In this document: positions 1,467 through 32,334 of the stretch, piece after piece
Layout: each line of letters begins with the position of its first letter
Numbering within the stretch: the first letter of the stretch is position 1
Source of the DNA: a virus
Length of the DNA: 32,556 nt
Reading direction: 5' to 3' (one strand)
IMG/VR virus record: IMGVR_UViG_3300036985_001946
Location: 1 to 32,556 of that record
The notes under the pieces: generated by a model
What the model was told of the DNA's origin: nothing
Databases searched by the model: none
The model's input: only the letters and a program-made list of their open reading frames with translations
Program-made: the position numbers and the translations under genes

Positions 1467-3812
1467 TTATTTCTTGTACCACTTACCATCCACGCCTTGA
1501 GTAATCTCACTGGGCTTGTACTTCATTGGATCAACTGGCGTTCCCATCTTCGGTAGCCAGTAAGCTACATCTTGCTCGGGGATGTACTGGGTCGCGAAGT
1601 TTGCTTTGCTCGGCACTGGCGTTGCTGTGTAGATTCTGGCAATGTCACTGGCTTTAATGTAAGCCACATCCCTACGTCCAGCTAAAGGCCCACGACTTAT
1701 CAGCGAAGTAACCATAATAACGCCATTGCCCAAGTCCCTCGCATCTGCTACATCCACAGCCTGTGTTGGGTCTTTGGTCAGGATGCCACGGGAAAGCAAC
1801 GAGCGTCCATAGGCTACCTTCATCGCGTTGTCGTAATGCTTCTGATCCAGCGTACTACTGTTGACAGCTCGCATGACGCTTCCCTTGAACTGGTCGCCGC
1901 GAGCTACAACGTCGGCATCTGCTTCTACCAACACACCTGCTACGACAGTCAACTTCTTCCGCACGTCAGCCTGCGCATGTGCGATGATCTGCTCGTCGTC
2001 GAGGTTAGTGGTCTGCTTGTAAACGGCCACTCTCTCAGCAAGTTCGCGAACAAGCCGGCGAGACTGCCCCGGAATAAGCCCGTCATACTCTGCCTTGCCA
2101 AACACCGAGGTAAGCCAGTTACTTTGGCCGGATTCAACAATAGCTTCAGCGGCCTTGTAGTCGTCCTTACTGGCCTGAGCAAAGCTCTTCTGGTGCTGGA
2201 GATTTACTTGTGCTTGTAGAGCCACCTTATCCGAGAGGTCTACGCCGCTGCTCAGCAAGTCCTGCCAGTACGCTGCTTTGCCACCTGTGATGTTGTTCAC
2301 TGCGTCTACACCGTAGGCTTTGTCCGTCAGCAGAGTACCTACCACAGCCAGAGAGTCCAAGTCATCAGATTCTAGTAGCCCACCGGCCTGCACTTTAGCT
2401 CCTAGCGCACGCGCACGTTCTTTGTACAACGTCGGTACGGTGCGGGGATCATGCGCCATCATGCGGTTGAATTTTCCCATGAACTCGACGCGAGCTTTCG
2501 GGTTTTTAATTGTAAGTCCGGTCTGTAACAGCGCGTCTGCCGCCGCGCCGATCTCGGCGGGCTTATAGAGGTCAAGGTTTACTCTGCCCGGATTGTGCAG
2601 GTCTTCGTAAAGAGCTTGGTCAACAGGAGGTGGCTCGTCTGCTGCTTTTGCTGCGGCCCTCTGCCTAGCTATAACCCCAGCATCACGAGCTGACCGCAGT
2701 CGTATGGCATCGTTCTGGTTAAACAGGTTGCCTACGCCACCCTCTGGTGTCTTGGCGTGAGCTGCGTTGCCGTTGGCGACGTAGGCGTCAATCTCACTAT
2801 CGGACATCCAAGGTGCTACGCCCATCTGCAAGTTTGATGCGAGCAAATCAAGGTCGCCACGCGGCGTTCCCAGCAACGGATTCTCCAGAGCAGCCTTCCG
2901 AGTGGCAGAATCTTCTTTTGCCACCAGCTCCTGCTGCTGCACTTCGGAAAGCTCGTTCCATTGCTCACTGTTACGAAAGCGGGAGTAGGCGCTCACCTGC
3001 CCGTTGTCGAGCATCCGGCTTGCCGCCATAGCGCGGGTACGCTGCACGCTCTCATTGGTCTGGCCCGGCACTGACATGTCGAGTGAGGACAGGAGGTTCT
3101 GCTCAGCGACGGAAATGGCGTCGCTGTTGACTGTGCCTGCATTAACCTGAGCAAGCGTGGACTGGAAAGCCCCAGCTGCGGCGTCAGCAGCATCGAGCGC
3201 GCTGTTGACATACTCTTGGTTGACGTAGGCCACTCGGGCCTTGGCGTGAGCCGTCATGGCTTTCGGCAAGTTTTCAACGAACTGCTGCTCCGCCATTGCG
3301 CGAGAGCCGGCATCCATGCCTTCGAGCGCAGTCTGGATTCGCACCCGCGCTGCGCCGGCAGCCTGCTCTGTAGTAAGCCCGGCCATGTCAGGGATAGCAT
3401 CATACATCTCCGACATCACCCGCGACACGGTGGCATTGCTGTGATGCAGCTGGGCACCGATGACAGCAGGGGCGTCCTGTCCCAAGAAGGTAAGGATTGG
3501 ATTCTGCTCAGCCCGCAGCTCGTCCACGGACTCTCCGGCAGCGGCGCGACTCATGCCATCCCATAAAGCAGCTTCTTTGGCTTCCTTGATTTTGCCGTCG
3601 ATGATGCCGGAGGTCAGTTTCCACAAGCCACCGAATGCTGACTCGATGCTACCAGTAGGCTGGCCTGCGATGGCTGTCTGTACATCAGCGGCGGCAGTTA
3701 GTCGGGCAGTGGTGCCAGACTCTGCGGCCTGTACTGGGATTGGCTCGCTCGGGGCGAACGACTGCGGCGCACCTGACAGCTCGGTGGTGCCCTGTGGAAC
3801 GAAAGAAGTCAT
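1467..3812 (-). CDS. Internal virion / ejection protein (T7 gp15-like)
   Basis: 781 residues, close to T7 gp15 (747). No enzymatic motif is visible. The protein is Ala/Gln/Asp-rich and largely helical in composition, with a short low-complexity N-terminus and a basic C-terminal end (DGKWYKK), as expected of internal core proteins that are ejected with the DNA and help build the periplasmic tunnel. Its ATG overlaps the stop of the upstream gp14-like gene by one base (TAATG) with GAGG five bases before it. Assignment rests on length and on position between gp14-like and gp16-like genes; direct sequence similarity cannot be judged by eye. Confidence 0.8.
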   Translation of the reverse strand: MTSFVPQGTTELSGAPQSFAPSEPIPVQAAESGTTARLTAAADVQTAIAGQPTGSIESAFGGLWKLTSGIIDGKIKEAKEAALWDGMSRAAAGESVDELRAEQNPILTFLGQDAPAVIGAQLHHSNATVSRVMSEMYDAIPDMAGLTTEQAAGAARVRIQTALEGMDAGSRAMAEQQFVENLPKAMTAHAKARVAYVNQEYVNSALDAADAAAGAFQSTLAQVNAGTVNSDAISVAEQNLLSSLDMSVPGQTNESVQRTRAMAASRMLDNGQVSAYSRFRNSEQWNELSEVQQQELVAKEDSATRKAALENPLLGTPRGDLDLLASNLQMGVAPWMSDSEIDAYVANGNAAHAKTPEGGVGNLFNQNDAIRLRSARDAGVIARQRAAAKAADEPPPVDQALYEDLHNPGRVNLDLYKPAEIGAAADALLQTGLTIKNPKARVEFMGKFNRMMAHDPRTVPTLYKERARALGAKVQAGGLLESDDLDSLAVVGTLLTDKAYGVDAVNNITGGKAAYWQDLLSSGVDLSDKVALQAQVNLQHQKSFAQASKDDYKAAEAIVESGQSNWLTSVFGKAEYDGLIPGQSRRLVRELAERVAVYKQTTNLDDEQIIAHAQADVRKKLTVVAGVLVEADADVVARGDQFKGSVMRAVNSSTLDQKHYDNAMKVAYGRSLLSRGILTKDPTQAVDVADARDLGNGVIMVTSLISRGPLAGRRDVAYIKASDIARIYTATPVPSKANFATQYIPEQDVAYWLPKMGTPVDPMKYKPSEITQGVDGKWYKK

Positions 3813-11540: not shown

Positions 11541-11864
11541 TTAAATGCGGAGGCCGGAGCTACTGGCTTGGAACGACTTCCGTCGCTGTGCCGTGGCCTT
11601 GGCCGGGTTTATATCGTTACCTACCTGCACCACCGGGGCGGCAGTCGGGGATTGGCTTTCGATTACAGCCTTCGCTGTCTCAGCAGCTTTGGCCTGAGCG
11701 ATCTGAGTCTCACTCTGAGCCTGCACTTGTGCAGCCTGCTGGGCAGCGTCTTGCTCGGCCCGCTTGGCAGCGGCGTTGACTTGAGCAGCCTGTTTCTTCG
11801 CAGCTTGGTGGCTGCTGACAGCGGAGGCTGCGCCCACTACTGCAATCGTTGCGCTAATCGCCAT
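11541..11864 (-). CDS. Small putative virion protein (positional analogue of T7 gp6.7/gp7.3)
   Basis: 107 residues from the ATG at 11864, which has AAGGAG about nine bases upstream; a longer frame starting at 11972 lacks a ribosome site. Residues 2-18 form a small-residue hydrophobic helix (AISATIAVVGAASAVSS), followed by a long Ala/Gln/Lys coiled-coil-like segment (20-70). Small proteins of this shape directly ahead of the portal gene in T7 relatives are minor virion or tail assembly proteins. The function is inferred from position and shape; I do not recognise the sequence. Confidence 0.65.
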   Translation of the reverse strand: MAISATIAVVGAASAVSSHQAAKKQAAQVNAAAKRAEQDAAQQAAQVQAQSETQIAQAKAAETAKAVIESQSPTAAPVVQVGNDINPAKATAQRRKSFQASSSGLRI

Positions 11865-12315
11865 GTGCGGCAAGCTCCTTAGAGTAGATGATGTCTTGGA
11901 CTGCGTAGGACTTGCTGAGCATTGTGTCCAGCGCGGTGTCCTTCTTTGCGTGCCACAGCATGAGCTTGGCACCTAGGGCAGCGACCTGAGTCTCCGTCTC
12001 TTCGACGAGTTTGCGACCAGCGCCGGAAAGGCGGTAGTCCTGCAATACGAACAGAAGGTCGTTCTGCCCAACTATCAGCCCGCTGTAGTGCGGATGGTTT
12101 ACAACGAACGTCAAGCTGTATCCGACGAGAGTGCCATTGTCGAACATGCCAATGCAGTGCAGATTGCCGGCATCTTGCATACGAGCGTACAGGTCTTTAT
12201 CAGGAGACAGCACCATCAGGTCTTTATTCAAAGCCACTTCGTCGTAGTGCAGCGGCAGGAGCGGAAGCATCATGCGGAACAGGTCAGAGAACTCGCGGTG
12301 TTCATAGGTAATCAT
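11854..12315 (-). CDS. GNAT-like N-acetyltransferase
   Basis: 153 residues with GNAT architecture: beta strands with LVGYSLTFVV (63-72), then NDLLFVLQDYRLSGAGRKLVEE (85-106), in which RLSGAGRKL matches the acetyl-CoA pyrophosphate-binding signature Q/R-x-x-G-x-G/A, and a later strand LGAKLMLWHA (114-123). Proteins of this type occur before the portal gene in many phiKMV-like phages; their substrate is unknown. The start is coupled to the upstream gene (ATGA) with GAGGG seven bases before it. The C-terminal end overlaps the next gene by 11 bases. Confidence 0.75.
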   Translation of the reverse strand: MITYEHREFSDLFRMMLPLLPLHYDEVALNKDLMVLSPDKDLYARMQDAGNLHCIGMFDNGTLVGYSLTFVVNHPHYSGLIVGQNDLLFVLQDYRLSGAGRKLVEETETQVAALGAKLMLWHAKKDTALDTMLSKSYAVQDIIYSKELAAHGD

Positions 12316-12614
12316 GCTGCGGCCCTCGGAGTAATTGAGATGAGATTCGCGTCATTGCCAGTAGCGGCTTCCTTGAGTGCGTCTAGGATTTCCTGCGGTG
12401 GTACTGCGTCATCGAATGATAGCAGGAAGCGCACCTCGTAAGCCTTGGAATCAAAGTACCACGGCTCGTCCACGACGGCGGCGTTTACAAGCCAGCCGCC
12501 CATGACAAAGGTGTCAGGGCTAGTAATCAGGTAGCTGCGAAGGCGACCAGCTGGGAGCAGGGCTGCAAGCAGCTCGGTGTGTTCGTGACGAATTCGCTCA
12601 GCGACCAGTGACAT
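12312..12614 (-). CDS. Hypothetical protein upstream of the acetyltransferase
   Basis: 100 residues from the ATG at 12614 (GAG six bases upstream); an in-frame ATG at 12620 is an alternative with a worse site. It shows a central hydrophobic patch (FVMGGWLVNAAVVDEPWYFD) and a second beta/alpha stretch (YEVRFLLSFDDAVPPQEILDALKEA) but no motif I recognise. It overlaps the preceding small gene by 17 bases and is coupled by ATGA to the acetyltransferase gene, so it is a genuine member of the late operon. Confidence 0.7.
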   Translation of the reverse strand: MSLVAERIRHEHTELLAALLPAGRLRSYLITSPDTFVMGGWLVNAAVVDEPWYFDSKAYEVRFLLSFDDAVPPQEILDALKEAATGNDANLISITPRAAA

Positions 12615-12768
12615 AGCCATCTCGCAGTAAGTTGAGGACGTGCTGGATACCTAGCTGGTAGCCTGCTTGTAATTCTGTTGTTTGGCCTCCGACAGCAATG
12701 CTGGGAAGCGCCCGTACAAGGGCAGCGAATGTCTCAGGATCGAGACGAGTAACGGTGTTGGTTGCCAT
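12598..12768 (-). CDS. Hypothetical 56-residue protein, first gene after the phage promoter
   Basis: Starts at the ATG at 12768 (MATNTVTRLDPETF...), with AAGGA about eight bases upstream. A longer frame beginning at 12813 would read through the putative phage promoter at 12784-12804 and has no ribosome site, so it is rejected. The product has a short amphipathic helix (PETFAALVRALPSI) and a second one (ELQAGYQLGIQHVLNLLRDGY). No family recognised. It would be the first cistron of transcripts starting at this promoter. Confidence 0.7.
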   Translation of the reverse strand: MATNTVTRLDPETFAALVRALPSIAVGGQTTELQAGYQLGIQHVLNLLRDGYVTGR

Positions 12769-12783
12769 AAAATGTTTCCTTGG

Positions 12784-12804
12784 GCTATAACTGTACCAAT
12801 TCAA
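12784..12804 (-). promoter_or_regulatory. Putative phage RNA polymerase promoter, late block
   Basis: A 21-base sequence whose core reads AATTGGTACAGTTATAGC on the minus strand occurs exactly twice in the window (here and at 32314-32334), both times upstream of minus-strand genes. Its form, AATT-GG-ACA-TATAG, resembles promoters of T7-group polymerases such as K11 and SP6 (ACACTATAG core). It sits directly behind the polymerase gene and 16 bases ahead of the first late gene. Initiation would be near the final GC (12784-12785). Confidence 0.72.
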
Positions 12805-12839
12805 AACCCGCATAGAATCTGATTCGGCACAGTTATAGC
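12784..12839. repeat. Inverted repeat: promoter plus a degenerate opposite-strand copy
   Basis: The arm 12784-12802 and the arm 12821-12839 are inverted copies, 11 bp perfect at the outer ends (GCTATAACTGT / ACAGTTATAGC), with three more pairs and wobbles inward and an 18-base spacer. On the plus strand the second arm matches 15 of 18 core promoter positions. The whole fits between the RNA polymerase stop (12850) and the first late gene. In RNA it could form a stem of about 14-16 bp without a U tract. Confidence 0.85.
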
Positions 12840-12849
12840 TGATAAAATG

Positions 12850-15282
12850 TCAGGAGAAAAAGTACATCGAGGACAGCACGCTGGTAATGTCGAGGGTGCC
12901 CCGGCTTGGCGGCGCGTCGATGAACGGGTACAGATCGTGGAACTGACGGAGAGGATCGTGTTTGACATACATGTCCACAAACACTTCTCGGATGATGTGG
13001 TAAAGCGCGTCTGCATCGGCAGCGTGAGTACCGTAGTCATCGTGGATCATTGCCAGAGCATCTATTGTCCGAGCGTCAGCATAGCATGTCACCATACACA
13101 AGTGTGCAGCATCCATACTGTGGATGAAGTTAGGAGCAATCCCATTCTTGTGAGCATTCCTATCAGGTAATTCTCCCTCAGAGCGCACCATGATCTTACC
13201 GTTGCCATGTAGTCTAGTATGGATACGATGATCCTGAGATTCCCAGTAGTGCTGTACAACTGGAAAGCCTGCTGGTGTAACCCAGCAAATACCCTCTGCA
13301 CCATTCTTGATGATCTTGTTAGAGCTGGCTTGCAGCCAGTCCATCGCTTCGCGAGCTTTGACAACTACGTCTGCGATAGCTTCCCATACAAAGTGGGATA
13401 GATACCGTGCAGCTCTGTCGTACTCTCCCTTCTCAAACTGCACAGCCTTGCCTTGCTTGAGGTAGTCAACGACAATGAACTCCGAGCAGGAGAATCTGGT
13501 GCTACCATACGGTAGGGTCATAACGCTACGCTTCACCAGTGTACGATTCATGCCGTGAGCTAACCACTTGGCACGGTAGCCAGCTGCATCTGGCGTCGCT
13601 GCTTCCAGCAGCTCCTGTACTCTGGCCGCAACCAGCGCGTATATGTCACTTGGCTTCGAGCCGGGAATAAGGTTTGTTGCCTTGCCACCTACCTCGTCCC
13701 GCAGCATAGCTGAGAAGTTTTGTAGGCCGTTGCAGCTACCATCCATACCCACTGACACACGAGACTCAAATGTCGTAGGAGAGTGGCACCACTCTGCGTA
13801 CTCAAAAACCCATGCAAGGAACTGCATTGGTACATCCGCTTCCCGCCACTCGTTGTGCGTGATTGGATCAGCAGCCATACGTAGAAAGAACTGCTTGTTC
13901 TCGTCAACCTTGCGGACACGTTCCGCCAGCGGCAACTTATCCCAACCCCAGCGGTTTGCTCCGGCGATCTTAAACCAATCGACAGCGCGCTCAGTGTTGA
14001 GCACCTTGCCGTCAGCGAACTCAAGCAGCGCCTTCTGCAAGTCTGAGCCTTGCGGTGACACCCCAGTGGTGCGGCAGTAGTGCCGGCCACGGAAGTCAGC
14101 GAAGTACACGAAGTACAGGGCGGGGTAGTCCTTGAACTCCTCTGACACCCGCATAGCTTGAGTGAAGCGGCCCCACTTGCTGCCCCTCAGCTTCAACTCG
14201 GTGTGCCAGTTAGCCATCTCCCGCTTCCACTGGCTGAACTCAGTCAACTCGTTTGGCGACATGTCGTCCTTAGTCTGGTTGACCAGCCAGTTCGGCCTTG
14301 GTGGTGCGGGGAAGTCTGCCTGCGACAGAATCTCATCGACATCAAAGTGACGGGCTACCTGCTTGGCAGCAGCGAGCACGCGCTGATTTATGCGCCACTT
14401 GACAGACTGCAATTTGTTCAGCGACTTGAACAGGTTCGGTGATGGGTTGTCTTGCAGGTACTCCCGCGCCGAGGGCGCAGCCTGCACGCAGAAGGGATAC
14501 ACACGCTTCATCTCACGGGTGTGAAAGCCACCCTCGGCCAGAGAAGTCCAGTCCTGCGGCTTCTCGACACATGGTGTGCTGAACTTGGCAACCTCCACGA
14601 CATACCCAGTGATTTGTTGCACCACGTTCATCGCCTCGTAGCTCAGGGCTACGCTGTCTGCCACGCTCATACGCCGCCGACGGCCATCCCACTCCTCAGT
14701 CCGGTGCATCTCAACAAGCCCCAGCTGCTCGCACTTGTTGAGCAGGTAAAGTCCGACCTGCTGCACGCTGCCGACACCCCAGTCCGGCAACTCGATGCCT
14801 CGCTCTTTGGCCTGCATCTTGAATACCGTCATGCGATGGCGCTCGGACTTGGACAACTTGCGGGTGAAGTCGTTTACGAGGGTGTGGAACAGGGCGGGGT
14901 CAATGTGCTCGAACACTGCAAGGCACTGCTCGTGGTATACAGCCCGGCCAATCGGATGATCCAAGTGACGTACCGACACCACGTCCTCTTTGCCGGAGGA
15001 CATGAGCGTGCTGATGATGGTGCGGCAGGTGAGGAACGCTACTGCTTCTGGGTCAATGCCCTTGAGTAGCAGCGTGTGGGCCTGCTGCCGGCCAGCCTTC
15101 TTCACCTTAAGGTCAGTCGCTACAGCCTGCGCAAGTGGGAGCACATACCGCTTATACAGCTCAGCAGTGTACGGGTTGTTGTGTGCCCGGCCCTGCTCTT
15201 CGTTGTTGGCAATGATGCGGGCTGCGCGGCATTTGCCGTGGGCATACATCTTGTGTTCCAGTTCCACTTGCGTCATCAGCAT
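12850..15282 (-). CDS. Phage single-subunit DNA-directed RNA polymerase (T7 gp1-like)
   Basis: 810 residues, the size of phiKMV-type enzymes (T7 883). Visible motifs: the D/TxxGR element FADFRGRHY (394-402); motif A DGSCNGLQNFSAMLRDEVGG (514-533) with catalytic Asp514; motif B KRSVMTLPYGS (584-594) with Lys584 and Tyr592; GIAPNFIHSMDAAHL (714-728); motif C HDDYGTHAAD (747-756) with Asp748. The C-terminus ends in FFS, comparable to the aromatic foot of T7 polymerase. It transcribes phage promoters independently of host subunits. The gene lies after the ligase gene (10-base gap) and just ahead of the promoter at 12784-12804, the phiKMV arrangement, which implies that host polymerase reads all preceding genes. 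ATG at 15282 chosen; an ATG two codons later is possible. Confidence 0.97.
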   Translation of the reverse strand: MLMTQVELEHKMYAHGKCRAARIIANNEEQGRAHNNPYTAELYKRYVLPLAQAVATDLKVKKAGRQQAHTLLLKGIDPEAVAFLTCRTIISTLMSSGKEDVVSVRHLDHPIGRAVYHEQCLAVFEHIDPALFHTLVNDFTRKLSKSERHRMTVFKMQAKERGIELPDWGVGSVQQVGLYLLNKCEQLGLVEMHRTEEWDGRRRRMSVADSVALSYEAMNVVQQITGYVVEVAKFSTPCVEKPQDWTSLAEGGFHTREMKRVYPFCVQAAPSAREYLQDNPSPNLFKSLNKLQSVKWRINQRVLAAAKQVARHFDVDEILSQADFPAPPRPNWLVNQTKDDMSPNELTEFSQWKREMANWHTELKLRGSKWGRFTQAMRVSEEFKDYPALYFVYFADFRGRHYCRTTGVSPQGSDLQKALLEFADGKVLNTERAVDWFKIAGANRWGWDKLPLAERVRKVDENKQFFLRMAADPITHNEWREADVPMQFLAWVFEYAEWCHSPTTFESRVSVGMDGSCNGLQNFSAMLRDEVGGKATNLIPGSKPSDIYALVAARVQELLEAATPDAAGYRAKWLAHGMNRTLVKRSVMTLPYGSTRFSCSEFIVVDYLKQGKAVQFEKGEYDRAARYLSHFVWEAIADVVVKAREAMDWLQASSNKIIKNGAEGICWVTPAGFPVVQHYWESQDHRIHTRLHGNGKIMVRSEGELPDRNAHKNGIAPNFIHSMDAAHLCMVTCYADARTIDALAMIHDDYGTHAADADALYHIIREVFVDMYVKHDPLRQFHDLYPFIDAPPSRGTLDITSVLSSMYFFS

Positions 15283-19984: not shown

Positions 19985-22327
19985 TTAAGTTCTCTCAAAA
20001 GTTGGGACGTAATTGTCCATGTAAAGTTTACGAAGTTCGTTGCGGATGTCGGCGTGAACAGCTACGTCGATCTTGTTCTCTTCCATCATGTTGTCCCCGA
20101 CCACGGTATCGGATGGCACAGGCACTGGGCAATCCCAGCCGAACCACCACTCCATGAACTCGGAGGCAGCAACCATGCAGGCATGAAGCGAGCTGGCTGC
20201 AATGGGTGTACTGGTCAGCGCACTGTCAACATAGAGCGCATCGTGTACTTGGTTTACCAGCAGTGCCTCGCCGGCGAAGTTGCGGTGAAGGTAGAAGTAG
20301 CGAACGGCCAGCCACATAGCAGCCTTGGCCCACTCACCACCTGCGCCTTGCACAACATAGTTCTTGATTTCCGTAGGGCTGAACGAGGTCAGATGCCCAC
20401 GCTTTGCGAGGTACTCAGGACTCGGCTGCTCCTCGTAGGAATACCGCTTGTTGTCTGGCGTAACGAAATGGGACTTGCCGATCTGGCACATCGCACCACG
20501 AAGCGTTGGGTGTGGTACGAACTTGGAGGTAGCCCGCCGATTGCGCTTGACAGCCGCCGTAACAAGCTCGTAGTACGCGTCGATCTCAGGATAGCGGTCA
20601 GTCTCAGCCTTGATGAGTGCCTCGACTTCTTCCAGTGCCATGCCGGTGGACTCAGCGATCTTTGCTGCGCCAGCACCGTAAGCTCTCTGGAAGCTGAACA
20701 CTTTCGCTTTGGTACGCTTCGTGTCCCACTCTGGTATGCCCTCAGTCTTCGCAAGTCGGAACACCTCAGCATAATCCATGCCCTCCTTCTGGGCCACACG
20801 CACACAGTGCATGTCGAGGCCGGCCTTCAAGTCTTCGATGAGCTGATGGCACTTGGTTAAGATGGCCTGCACATACACTTCCAGTGCAGTGAAGTCAGAC
20901 TGAATGATCTTGCCACCCTCGAAGCGGGAGACAAACACCTTCTTGACATCGGACTTGCCACCCTTCGGGATGTTCTGCAAGTTCGGGTTGCTCGAAGAGA
21001 AGCGGCCAGTGACGGTGCTGGTATGGTTCAGGCTATGATGGATGATGCCATCCTCCTGCACCAAGGTCAGCATACCCTTGCTCTCGCCTGTCTCCTCGTC
21101 GGTCACGATGTAGTAAGTGCCGAGGTCTTTGGTCAGGCCGATAACCTCAGCGAGCTGCTTGAGGAACGGGATGTTACGGTTGCCTAGCTCCTTGATGATC
21201 TCAGCACCGACGGAGTACACTCCCTCTACGCTGCCTTCCCATTCCTTCTTCGGCTCAGTCATGCGAGGGAACTCGTAGTAGAAGTCCTCCCACTTGAGCT
21301 TGGGCTTGTCGAGGTCGGGCACTGTAACCTGCTTGGTCTTGAACTCACCCGCATTCTTGCCACCAGCGAACACAGTGTACTCCATGAGGGAGTGGGCAGA
21401 GTCCGGGCCGGGTGGCTCAGGTGTAGTGCTACCGTCGTTGAGCTTGTACTGTACCTCTGTCTTGTTGGAGTACAGCAGGAACCCATCGGAGTCCATCTGA
21501 TGGATGCGCTGCTGGTACTTTACCTTGCCGCCAAAGATGAGGGCGGACAGTTGCTGGCGGCTTGACCACTTGAACTCGAACGGCAGCTCAGCAGGCAGGA
21601 AGGTGTCAAGCTCAGCACGCAGGATAACGAGGCGCTTGGACAACTCCTCAGCTAGGCGCAGGCCCAGCTCCTTGTCCACGGCCATGCCGTTGCGTTCCAT
21701 CTCGATGGTGCAGAGCAGGCTGCCCATGTTGAGCATGATGCTCTTGACTTGCTTGGACTCACGGGCACGCTTGAGCTGGCCGAGGAAAATAATCTCGGTG
21801 TTGCCAATGTCGCCGTGGCTATACTGCCCATGCTCATCGGTATGGCCGCAGAGGTAGCGGGTCAGGATTGCGCGGTCAATGTCCGGCGTGTTCACACCGG
21901 CAGCCCACAGCGCCTTGACCTCATCGAACTTGACATTGCCACCGTAAACCGGGGCAACCTCGTCGAGGTCCAGCATGTGGCTGCTCTTCTCGCAGCCGTT
22001 GAGCAGGTACTCCGCCAGCTGGGTGTCCCATACACTGCCGCCCTTGGCTACCCATGCCTGCCATGCAGCGAGGTTCTTGGGGTTGCGGTGGATGGCGTGC
22101 AGTAGGTCGAACTTGATGTTGTGCCCGACGAGTAGCTGCACATACTCAAGCAGCGGGGCCAGCCAGCCGTCGGCGGGACGGACGCGGCCATAGTACGAGG
22201 ACTCAACAGGGCCAGCCTTCCGCTGCCAGCCCACCATGACGACGTGGTTCAGTGGATCAAAGGGGTTGCCCTTGCGCTTGAAGCTGGAGTGAATGGTCGT
22301 CTCAAGGTCGAGGACTAGATAGGTCAT
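19985..22327 (-). CDS. Family A DNA polymerase with 3'-5' proofreading domain
   Basis: 780 residues. Exonuclease domain: LVLDLETT (4-11; Asp7, Glu9), GHNIKFDLLHA (68-78; Asp74), and a third acidic motif around 148-158. Polymerase domain: TGRFSSSNPNLQNIP (440-454), motif A QSDFTALEVYVQAIL (476-490; Asp478), motif B KRTKAKVFSFQRAYGAG (537-553) and motif C NQVHDALYVD (692-701; Asp696). Motif C has Ala697 where most relatives have Glu (HDE). It is the replicative polymerase, working with the separate primase and helicase. The ATG overlaps the stop of the winged-helix gene (ATGA) with GAGG ten bases upstream. Confidence 0.96.
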   Translation of the reverse strand: MTYLVLDLETTIHSSFKRKGNPFDPLNHVVMVGWQRKAGPVESSYYGRVRPADGWLAPLLEYVQLLVGHNIKFDLLHAIHRNPKNLAAWQAWVAKGGSVWDTQLAEYLLNGCEKSSHMLDLDEVAPVYGGNVKFDEVKALWAAGVNTPDIDRAILTRYLCGHTDEHGQYSHGDIGNTEIIFLGQLKRARESKQVKSIMLNMGSLLCTIEMERNGMAVDKELGLRLAEELSKRLVILRAELDTFLPAELPFEFKWSSRQQLSALIFGGKVKYQQRIHQMDSDGFLLYSNKTEVQYKLNDGSTTPEPPGPDSAHSLMEYTVFAGGKNAGEFKTKQVTVPDLDKPKLKWEDFYYEFPRMTEPKKEWEGSVEGVYSVGAEIIKELGNRNIPFLKQLAEVIGLTKDLGTYYIVTDEETGESKGMLTLVQEDGIIHHSLNHTSTVTGRFSSSNPNLQNIPKGGKSDVKKVFVSRFEGGKIIQSDFTALEVYVQAILTKCHQLIEDLKAGLDMHCVRVAQKEGMDYAEVFRLAKTEGIPEWDTKRTKAKVFSFQRAYGAGAAKIAESTGMALEEVEALIKAETDRYPEIDAYYELVTAAVKRNRRATSKFVPHPTLRGAMCQIGKSHFVTPDNKRYSYEEQPSPEYLAKRGHLTSFSPTEIKNYVVQGAGGEWAKAAMWLAVRYFYLHRNFAGEALLVNQVHDALYVDSALTSTPIAASSLHACMVAASEFMEWWFGWDCPVPVPSDTVVGDNMMEENKIDVAVHADIRNELRKLYMDNYVPTFERT

Positions 22328-32313: not shown

Positions 32314-32334
32314 GCTATAACTGTACCAATTCAA
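32314..32334 (-). promoter_or_regulatory. Putative phage RNA polymerase promoter, early leader copy
   Basis: Exact second copy of the 21-base sequence described at 12784-12804 (core AATTGGTACAGTTATAGC), same strand, about 920 bases before the first gene. It would let the phage polymerase re-transcribe the whole early and replication block, or prime replication at the genome start. Confidence 0.7.

What the first reader, a model, noticed from the sequence alone, without database searches (positions are those of the whole stretch)
12784..12839. The late promoter is half of an inverted repeat: a second, degenerate promoter copy points back into the polymerase gene
The 19-base arms (12784-12802 and 12821-12839) are inverted. 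The plus-strand arm keeps CACAGTTATAGC and matches 15 of 18 core positions, so the polymerase might start divergently and make antisense RNA across its own gene, a possible self-limiting feedback. Alternatively the RNA reading through from the polymerase gene folds into a ~14-16 bp stem that sequesters or processes the junction, like RNase III sites in T7. The distant copy at 32314 has no inverted partner, so the arrangement is specific to this place.
Basis: partly seen in the sequence, partly recalled or inferred. Interest (0 to 1): 0.66.

Follow-up and report, generated by a model that had tools for sequence, protein, structure and literature searches.

The report
Back-to-back phage promoters after polymerase gene
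Just after its RNA polymerase gene this T7-like virus carries its own late promoter twice, the second copy facing backwards into that gene; the same mirror arrangement, rewritten in each virus's own promoter 'spelling', recurs in many distant relatives, so it is probably a used, though dispensable, control element and not an accident.

Summary
The inverted repeat is real: 12784-12803 / 12820-12839, 17/20 complementary, confined to the late promoter of a T7/phiKMV-like phage. Among 91 distinct RNAP/late junctions of relatives, 17 carry such an inverted promoter pair, 10 carry a tandem pair as in T7, and most others carry at most one recognisable promoter. Each phage's reverse arm matches that phage's own promoter, which elsewhere occurs only in sense. 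Arm identity is 95% over -11..-8 and -5..-1 and near chance outside the promoter. Mismatches show no sense-RNA bias (G.U 11, A.C 10), unlike sister phages' stop-codon hairpins (18:2). Cautions: the reverse copy often carries one core change (-7/-6 in 7/15 phages, in none of 27 sense comparisons), so it may be weak or silent; and about 13 gains or losses on the tree show it is dispensable. Antisense output, RNase III cutting and origin function are untested; no GC-skew switch marks an origin.

The parts
12784..12803 (-). Arm 2: late phage promoter TGAATTGGTACAGTTATAGC; TATA at 12789-12786, predicted +1 G at 12785; GTAC core (-11..-8) at 12796-12793
   Evidence: Identical 20-mer (21 with the preceding T) in sense orientation at 32334-32314; layout matches T7-type promoters (inference)
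12804..12819 (.). 16-nt spacer between the two promoter copies (loop if the RNA folds)
12820..12839 (+). Arm 1: reverse-facing promoter copy TGATTCGGCACAGTTATAGC, predicted +1 at 12838, aimed into the RNAP gene; differs from arm 2 at -15, -13 and -10
12850..15282 (-). Single-subunit (T7-type) RNA polymerase gene, 810 aa
   Evidence: PHROG 414, E 5e-283
12598..12768 (-). First late gene (56 aa, phrog_5112); ATG at 12768, 17 nt after the predicted +1, with a Shine-Dalgarno-like AAGGA between
32314..32334 (-). Second sense promoter copy near the left end of the genome, without inverted partner

Best explanation
The inverted repeat is a head-to-head (divergent) pair of promoters for the phage's own RNA polymerase. 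Arm 2 drives the late genes. Arm 1 is a reverse-facing copy that selection keeps recognisable to the same polymerase, while allowing (or favouring) a single weakening change. Most likely it fires weakly, rightward on the window's + strand, making antisense RNA from the 3' end of the polymerase gene and opposing read-through from the left-end promoter. This would damp polymerase and early-gene expression once polymerase is abundant. Shown here: the sequence, its recurrence, its co-evolution with each phage's promoter, its confinement to promoter positions, and the absence of reverse copies elsewhere. Inferred: binding, initiation, antisense RNA and feedback.
For: Reverse arms match each phage's own promoter, which occurs elsewhere in the genome only in sense (WIN, L023, L028, L075, L079, L080). 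17 of 91 distinct junctions reach an inverted match of >=14/17, against 1 of 184 shuffled regions; 15 of those are promoter pairs, and L075 and L080 add two weaker ones. Identity by zone is 95% at -11..-8, 77% at -7..-6, 95% at -5..-1, 87% at +1..+2, 52% at -17..-12, 31% further in and 22% further out: the promoter's constraint profile, not a stem's. Arm differences sit mainly at -16..-12, with the hot spot at -13, where sense copies of one genome also differ. G.U 11 vs A.C 10 in these stems, against 18 vs 2 in stop-codon hairpins (Fisher p 0.015). Tandem pairs occupy the same locus in ten relatives and in T7. The arrangement spans both deep halves of the RNAP tree.
Against: Reverse arms carry -7/-6 changes in 7/15 phages, never seen in 27 sense-sense comparisons (Fisher p 0.0002); WIN has a core change at -10. 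This fits a weak promoter, but also a silenced one. Close relatives lack the reverse arm (L114 vs L079, L133 vs L149, L074 vs L078), and about 13 gains or losses are needed on the tree, so it is dispensable. No transcript data. In WIN and L001 taken alone, the sense RNA folds better than the antisense.
Confidence: 0.5

Rival explanations
1. RNA stem: RNA reading through from the polymerase gene folds the two arms into a hairpin that RNase III cuts (or that protects the 3' end), separating RNAP mRNA from late mRNA; mRNAs that start at arm 2 lack it. The promoter sequence is simply reused as one strand of the stem.
For: WIN folds at -30.8 kcal/mol, z -5.4 and L001 at -38.4, z -6.5. T7 has RNase III site R1.1 at this junction (PMC8708148; T7 sequence). 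Sister phages have a stop-codon hairpin with strong G.U bias, so a junction RNA stem matters in some relatives. In WIN two of three arm mismatches are G.U in sense RNA.
Against: Across the 17 inverted-pair loci mismatches are unbiased (11 G.U, 10 A.C, 13 other). Pairing stops at the promoter's edges. Several loci fold better as antisense RNA. Arm 1 matches promoter variants where it does not pair perfectly (for example L079 GATCTAG, L028 GGATAA).
Confidence: 0.22
2. Bidirectional replication origin: the divergent promoters make primers for leading strands in both directions, the mirror-image version of the T7 primary origin, which holds tandem promoters just after gene 1.
For: Same locus as the T7 phi1.1A/phi1.1B pair. 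T7's primary origin lies 15% from the left end and follows transcription, with bidirectional replication (PMC8472574); that it includes these two promoters is from my own knowledge of Saito 1980 and Fuller and Richardson 1985.
Against: No switch of third-position GC skew at the junction in the inverted-pair genomes, though lytic phages may show none. The arrangement is often missing in close relatives.
Confidence: 0.1
3. Passive remnant: an inverted duplication made by template switching, kept similar by quasi-palindrome correction, with the reverse promoter already crippled and no function.
For: Frequent gain or loss; single core changes in most reverse arms; the GTAC core is itself palindromic.
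Against: Core changes cluster at -7/-6 (7 of 18, p 0.014), which a random process does not predict; reverse copies occur at this one junction only; arms track promoter turnover across RNAPs that are only about 45-55% identical.
Confidence: 0.18

Closest known systems
T7 gene 1 / 1.1 junction: phi1.1A - RNase III site R1.1 - phi1.1B
   Same: Two phage promoters directly after the RNA polymerase gene, with a strong RNA hairpin in the read-through RNA (PMC8708148)
   Different: T7's two promoters are tandem and co-directional, with a separate hairpin between them; here the first copy is inverted and the two copies themselves form the inverted repeat
Tandem-pair relatives (L020, L027, L030, L041, L042, L047, L062, L081, L082, L087)
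   Same: Same junction, phage-specific promoter present twice; in several pairs the RNAP-proximal copy has TTTC where the distal one has TTTT, as in many inverted pairs
   Different: First copy faces forward
Aquamicrobium phage P14 (L023; KX660669)
   Same: Cultured phage with the inverted pair, about 20343-20356 / 20374-20387
   Different: Promoter sequence GGTACGCTCTAGCA; its genome paper reports host-type promoters elsewhere and no such element in the passages read (PMC5295034)
Antisense RNA in Pseudomonas phage LUZ100 (and, as that paper notes, LIT1 and LUZ7)
   Same: Phage antisense transcripts proposed to regulate structural genes (PMC10134795)
   Different: Located in the structural region downstream of the capsid gene, not at the RNAP junction; no inverted promoter pair described in the passages read

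Membership tests
T7-type single-subunit RNAP promoter | Short (~20 bp) sequence repeated at several sites of the same genome, sense to the genes | tested here: met
   Two exact sense copies in the window; 2-5 copies in relatives
T7-type single-subunit RNAP promoter | Initiates transcription by the cognate phage RNAP | not testable with these tools
   No transcript data; applies to both arms
Reverse-facing copy of that promoter (arm 1) | Matches the genome's own promoter across the core | tested here: met
   WIN 17/20; pooled over 15 loci 95% at -11..-8 and -5..-1
Reverse-facing copy of that promoter (arm 1) | No change at positions invariant among sense copies | tested here: not met
   -7/-6 changed in 7/15; WIN changed at -10
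RNase III site (T7 R1.1 type) | Long irregular stem in the read-through RNA | tested here: met
   -30.8 kcal/mol, z -5.4
RNase III site (T7 R1.1 type) | Pairing conserved in the sense RNA (G.U favoured over A.C) | tested here: not met
   11 vs 10 over 17 loci, against 18 vs 2 in the control set
RNase III site (T7 R1.1 type) | Cut by RNase III | not testable with these tools
   Needs infected-cell or in vitro cleavage data
Intrinsic terminator | Stem followed by a T run | tested here: not met
   Arm 2 is followed by CCAAGGAAAC; no terminator called at the junction on either strand
T7-like primary replication origin | Bidirectional initiation at the post-RNAP promoter pair | tested here: inconclusive
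   No GC3-skew switch at the junction; no replication data

The most novel reading that the evidence does not exclude
Many T7/phiKMV-like phages flip one of the two post-polymerase promoters, making a divergent pair that helps switch the genome from early to late: as polymerase accumulates, the reverse promoter sends antisense transcription back over the polymerase and early genes (and could prime leftward replication), a self-limiting loop built from one inverted promoter.
Probability: 0.3. Interest if true: 0.72.

Novelty: new variant of a known kind. Interest (0 to 1): 0.56.

Why it matters
T7-type polymerases can drive themselves in a runaway loop. How phages limit that loop is known for T7 (lysozyme binding; own knowledge) but hardly for the wider family. 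A recurrent, co-evolving reverse promoter at the end of the polymerase gene would be a simple DNA-encoded brake, or a mirror-image origin, and it can be tested in a cultured phage (P14). The arms also give matched polymerase-promoter pairs from many phages, useful for decoding promoter specificity.

Tried and rejected
Intrinsic terminator: no T tract and no call at the junction. Known RNA family: no Rfam hit in the window. Co-variation as proof of an RNA stem: WIN/L001 arms do change together, but in the genomes where other copies can be seen such changes follow the promoter, and the mismatch test shows no sense-RNA bias. A hairpin universal to the junction: 22 of 64 junctions without a promoter pair reach z<-2, against 8 of 65 random windows, so it is not universal. 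Replication origin by GC skew: no switch. Antisense ORF 12847-13170: its ATG is not kept in L001, so not pursued. Exact search for the window promoter in viral contigs: no hit. Library searches for a described divergent phage-promoter pair at this junction: none found in the open papers held, which does not show absence from the literature.

Full report
WHAT IS THERE. The window is a 32,556-base virus record of a T7/phiKMV-like phage; its nearest named relatives by DNA are Brevundimonas and Caulobacter podophages. All main genes lie on the minus strand. The RNA polymerase gene is 12850-15282 (PHROG 414, E 5e-283), and the first late gene starts at ATG 12768. Between them lies one inverted repeat, 12784-12803 / 12820-12839, 17 of 20 positions, 16 nt spacer. 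The downstream arm read on the minus strand, TGAATTGGTACAGTTATAGC, is repeated exactly at 32333-32314 near the left end of the genome, also in sense, so it is taken to be the phage promoter: TATA then G, with a GTAC core at -11..-8. The upstream arm read on the plus strand is TGATTCGGCACAGTTATAGC. The chance expectation for a match this good anywhere in the window is about zero.

RELATIVES. L001 (80% identical polymerase) has the same layout with both arms rewritten: AGTCGGGAGcGTACCgAATC ... GAATTGGTACaCTCCCGACT. I collected RNAP junctions with three further viral-contig scans plus named phages. After removing near-copies there were 91 distinct junctions. An ungapped 17-nt inverted match of at least 14 occurs in 17 of 91 junctions, against 1 of 184 shuffled regions; a direct match of at least 14 occurs in 10 of 91, against 1 of 184. 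By inspection I count 17 inverted promoter pairs: WIN, L001, L023, L028, L078, L079, L083, L118, L124, L126, L136, L149, L152, L181, L205, plus L080 and L075, which fall below the 14/17 level; L032 and L057 reach it but do not look like promoter pairs at the junction. The ten tandem pairs are L020, L027, L030, L041, L042, L047, L062, L081, L082, L087. On the polymerase tree the inverted pairs occur in both deep halves. If all other rows count as lacking it, about 13 gains or losses are needed, and close relatives can lack it (L114, L133, L074). The layout is therefore widespread but labile.

PROMOTER OR RNA STEM? Four tests. (1) Other copies: in six inverted-pair genomes the junction promoter also occurs elsewhere, always in sense; no other reverse copy was found. 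The arms of each phage therefore follow that phage's own promoter, so co-variation of the arms between phages is first of all promoter turnover. (L001 itself is only 4.4 kb, so its other promoters cannot be seen.) (2) Extent: pooled over 15 loci, arm identity is 95% at -11..-8, 77% at -7..-6, 95% at -5..-1 and 87% at +1..+2, but 52% at -17..-12, 31% further in and 22% further out. This is the profile of a promoter. (3) Kind of differences: arm-to-arm differences peak at -13 and fall mainly at -16..-12, as do differences between sense copies within a genome. (4) Strand bias: with scoring that treats G.U and A.C alike, inverted-pair stems have 11 G.U, 10 A.C and 13 other mismatches. The stop-codon hairpins of a sister clade, which serve as a positive control for a sense-RNA structure, have 18, 2 and 2 (Fisher 0.015 for G.U vs A.C and 0.0004 for G.U vs all others). 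The control rows are related to each other and one arm is coding, so these p values are optimistic. Taken together, the second arm looks like a DNA-level promoter copy. For WIN and L001 alone the RNA reading is stronger (sense RNA -30.8 vs antisense -19.8; -41.3 vs -31.4), so an added RNA role in this lineage stays open.

IS THE REVERSE COPY ACTIVE? Unknown. It usually carries one change in the core: at -7 or -6 in 7 of 15 loci, against 0 of 27 sense-sense comparisons (Fisher p 0.0002), and at -10 in the window. That is what a weakened promoter would show, or a silenced one kept for another reason. The sense-copy set was assembled by hand, and both sets were found by similarity searches, so the numbers are small and approximate.

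MECHANISM. Most likely the two copies are a divergent pair. Arm 2 starts the late transcript at 12785, 17 nt before the ATG. Arm 1 would start at 12838 and run antisense into the polymerase gene. The left-end copy at 32314 would transcribe through the early genes and the polymerase gene, which makes an autocatalytic loop (inference); a weak opposing promoter at the end of the polymerase gene would damp it (inference). The alternatives are an RNase III type stem, a mirror-image version of the T7 post-gene-1 origin, and a passive remnant. T7 itself has two promoters and an RNase III stem at this junction, and T7 replication starts 15% from the left end after transcription, bidirectionally (PMC8472574). 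GC skew gives no sign of an origin here.

COMPARISON AND NOVELTY. A post-polymerase promoter pair is known from T7 in tandem form. An inverted form, repeated across a broad set of relatives, I did not find described in the open papers searched; subscription literature was not available. I rate it a new variant of a known kind. A cultured phage with the layout exists (Aquamicrobium phage P14), so the question can be settled at the bench.

Noticed in passing
RNAP stop codon in L004, L005, L006, L009, L015, L016, L031, L084: A strong hairpin straddles the RNAP stop codon in the Brevundimonas/Caulobacter phage clade, with mismatches mostly G.U in sense RNA (18 vs 2 A.C), pointing to a selected RNA structure.
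   Followed up: partly
RNAP/late junctions of L087, L030, L047, L041, L042, L062, L027, L020: Tandem phage promoters after RNAP, in several cases with a hairpin between them, the same order as T7 phi1.1A - R1.1 - phi1.1B.
   Followed up: partly
L220 (Acinetobacter phage APK2), about 2900-3040: An intrinsic terminator with a long T run follows the RNAP gene, then two tandem copies of TTTGAAGTTACACTTATAGAAGG.
   Followed up: no
L102:256 and L103:14001: A phage promoter copy with identical flanks sits near both ends of the L087 contig, so probably in the terminal repeat (like T7 phiOL); the window's copy at 32314 is also near the genome's left end.
   Followed up: no
window 11854-12315 (-): Acetyltransferase-like gene (phrog_1249) near the start of the late operon.
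   Followed up: no
inverted-pair loci, promoter positions -7/-6 of the reverse arm: Reverse arms change at -7 or -6 in 7 of 15 phages although sense copies never do; the reason is not known.
   Followed up: partly
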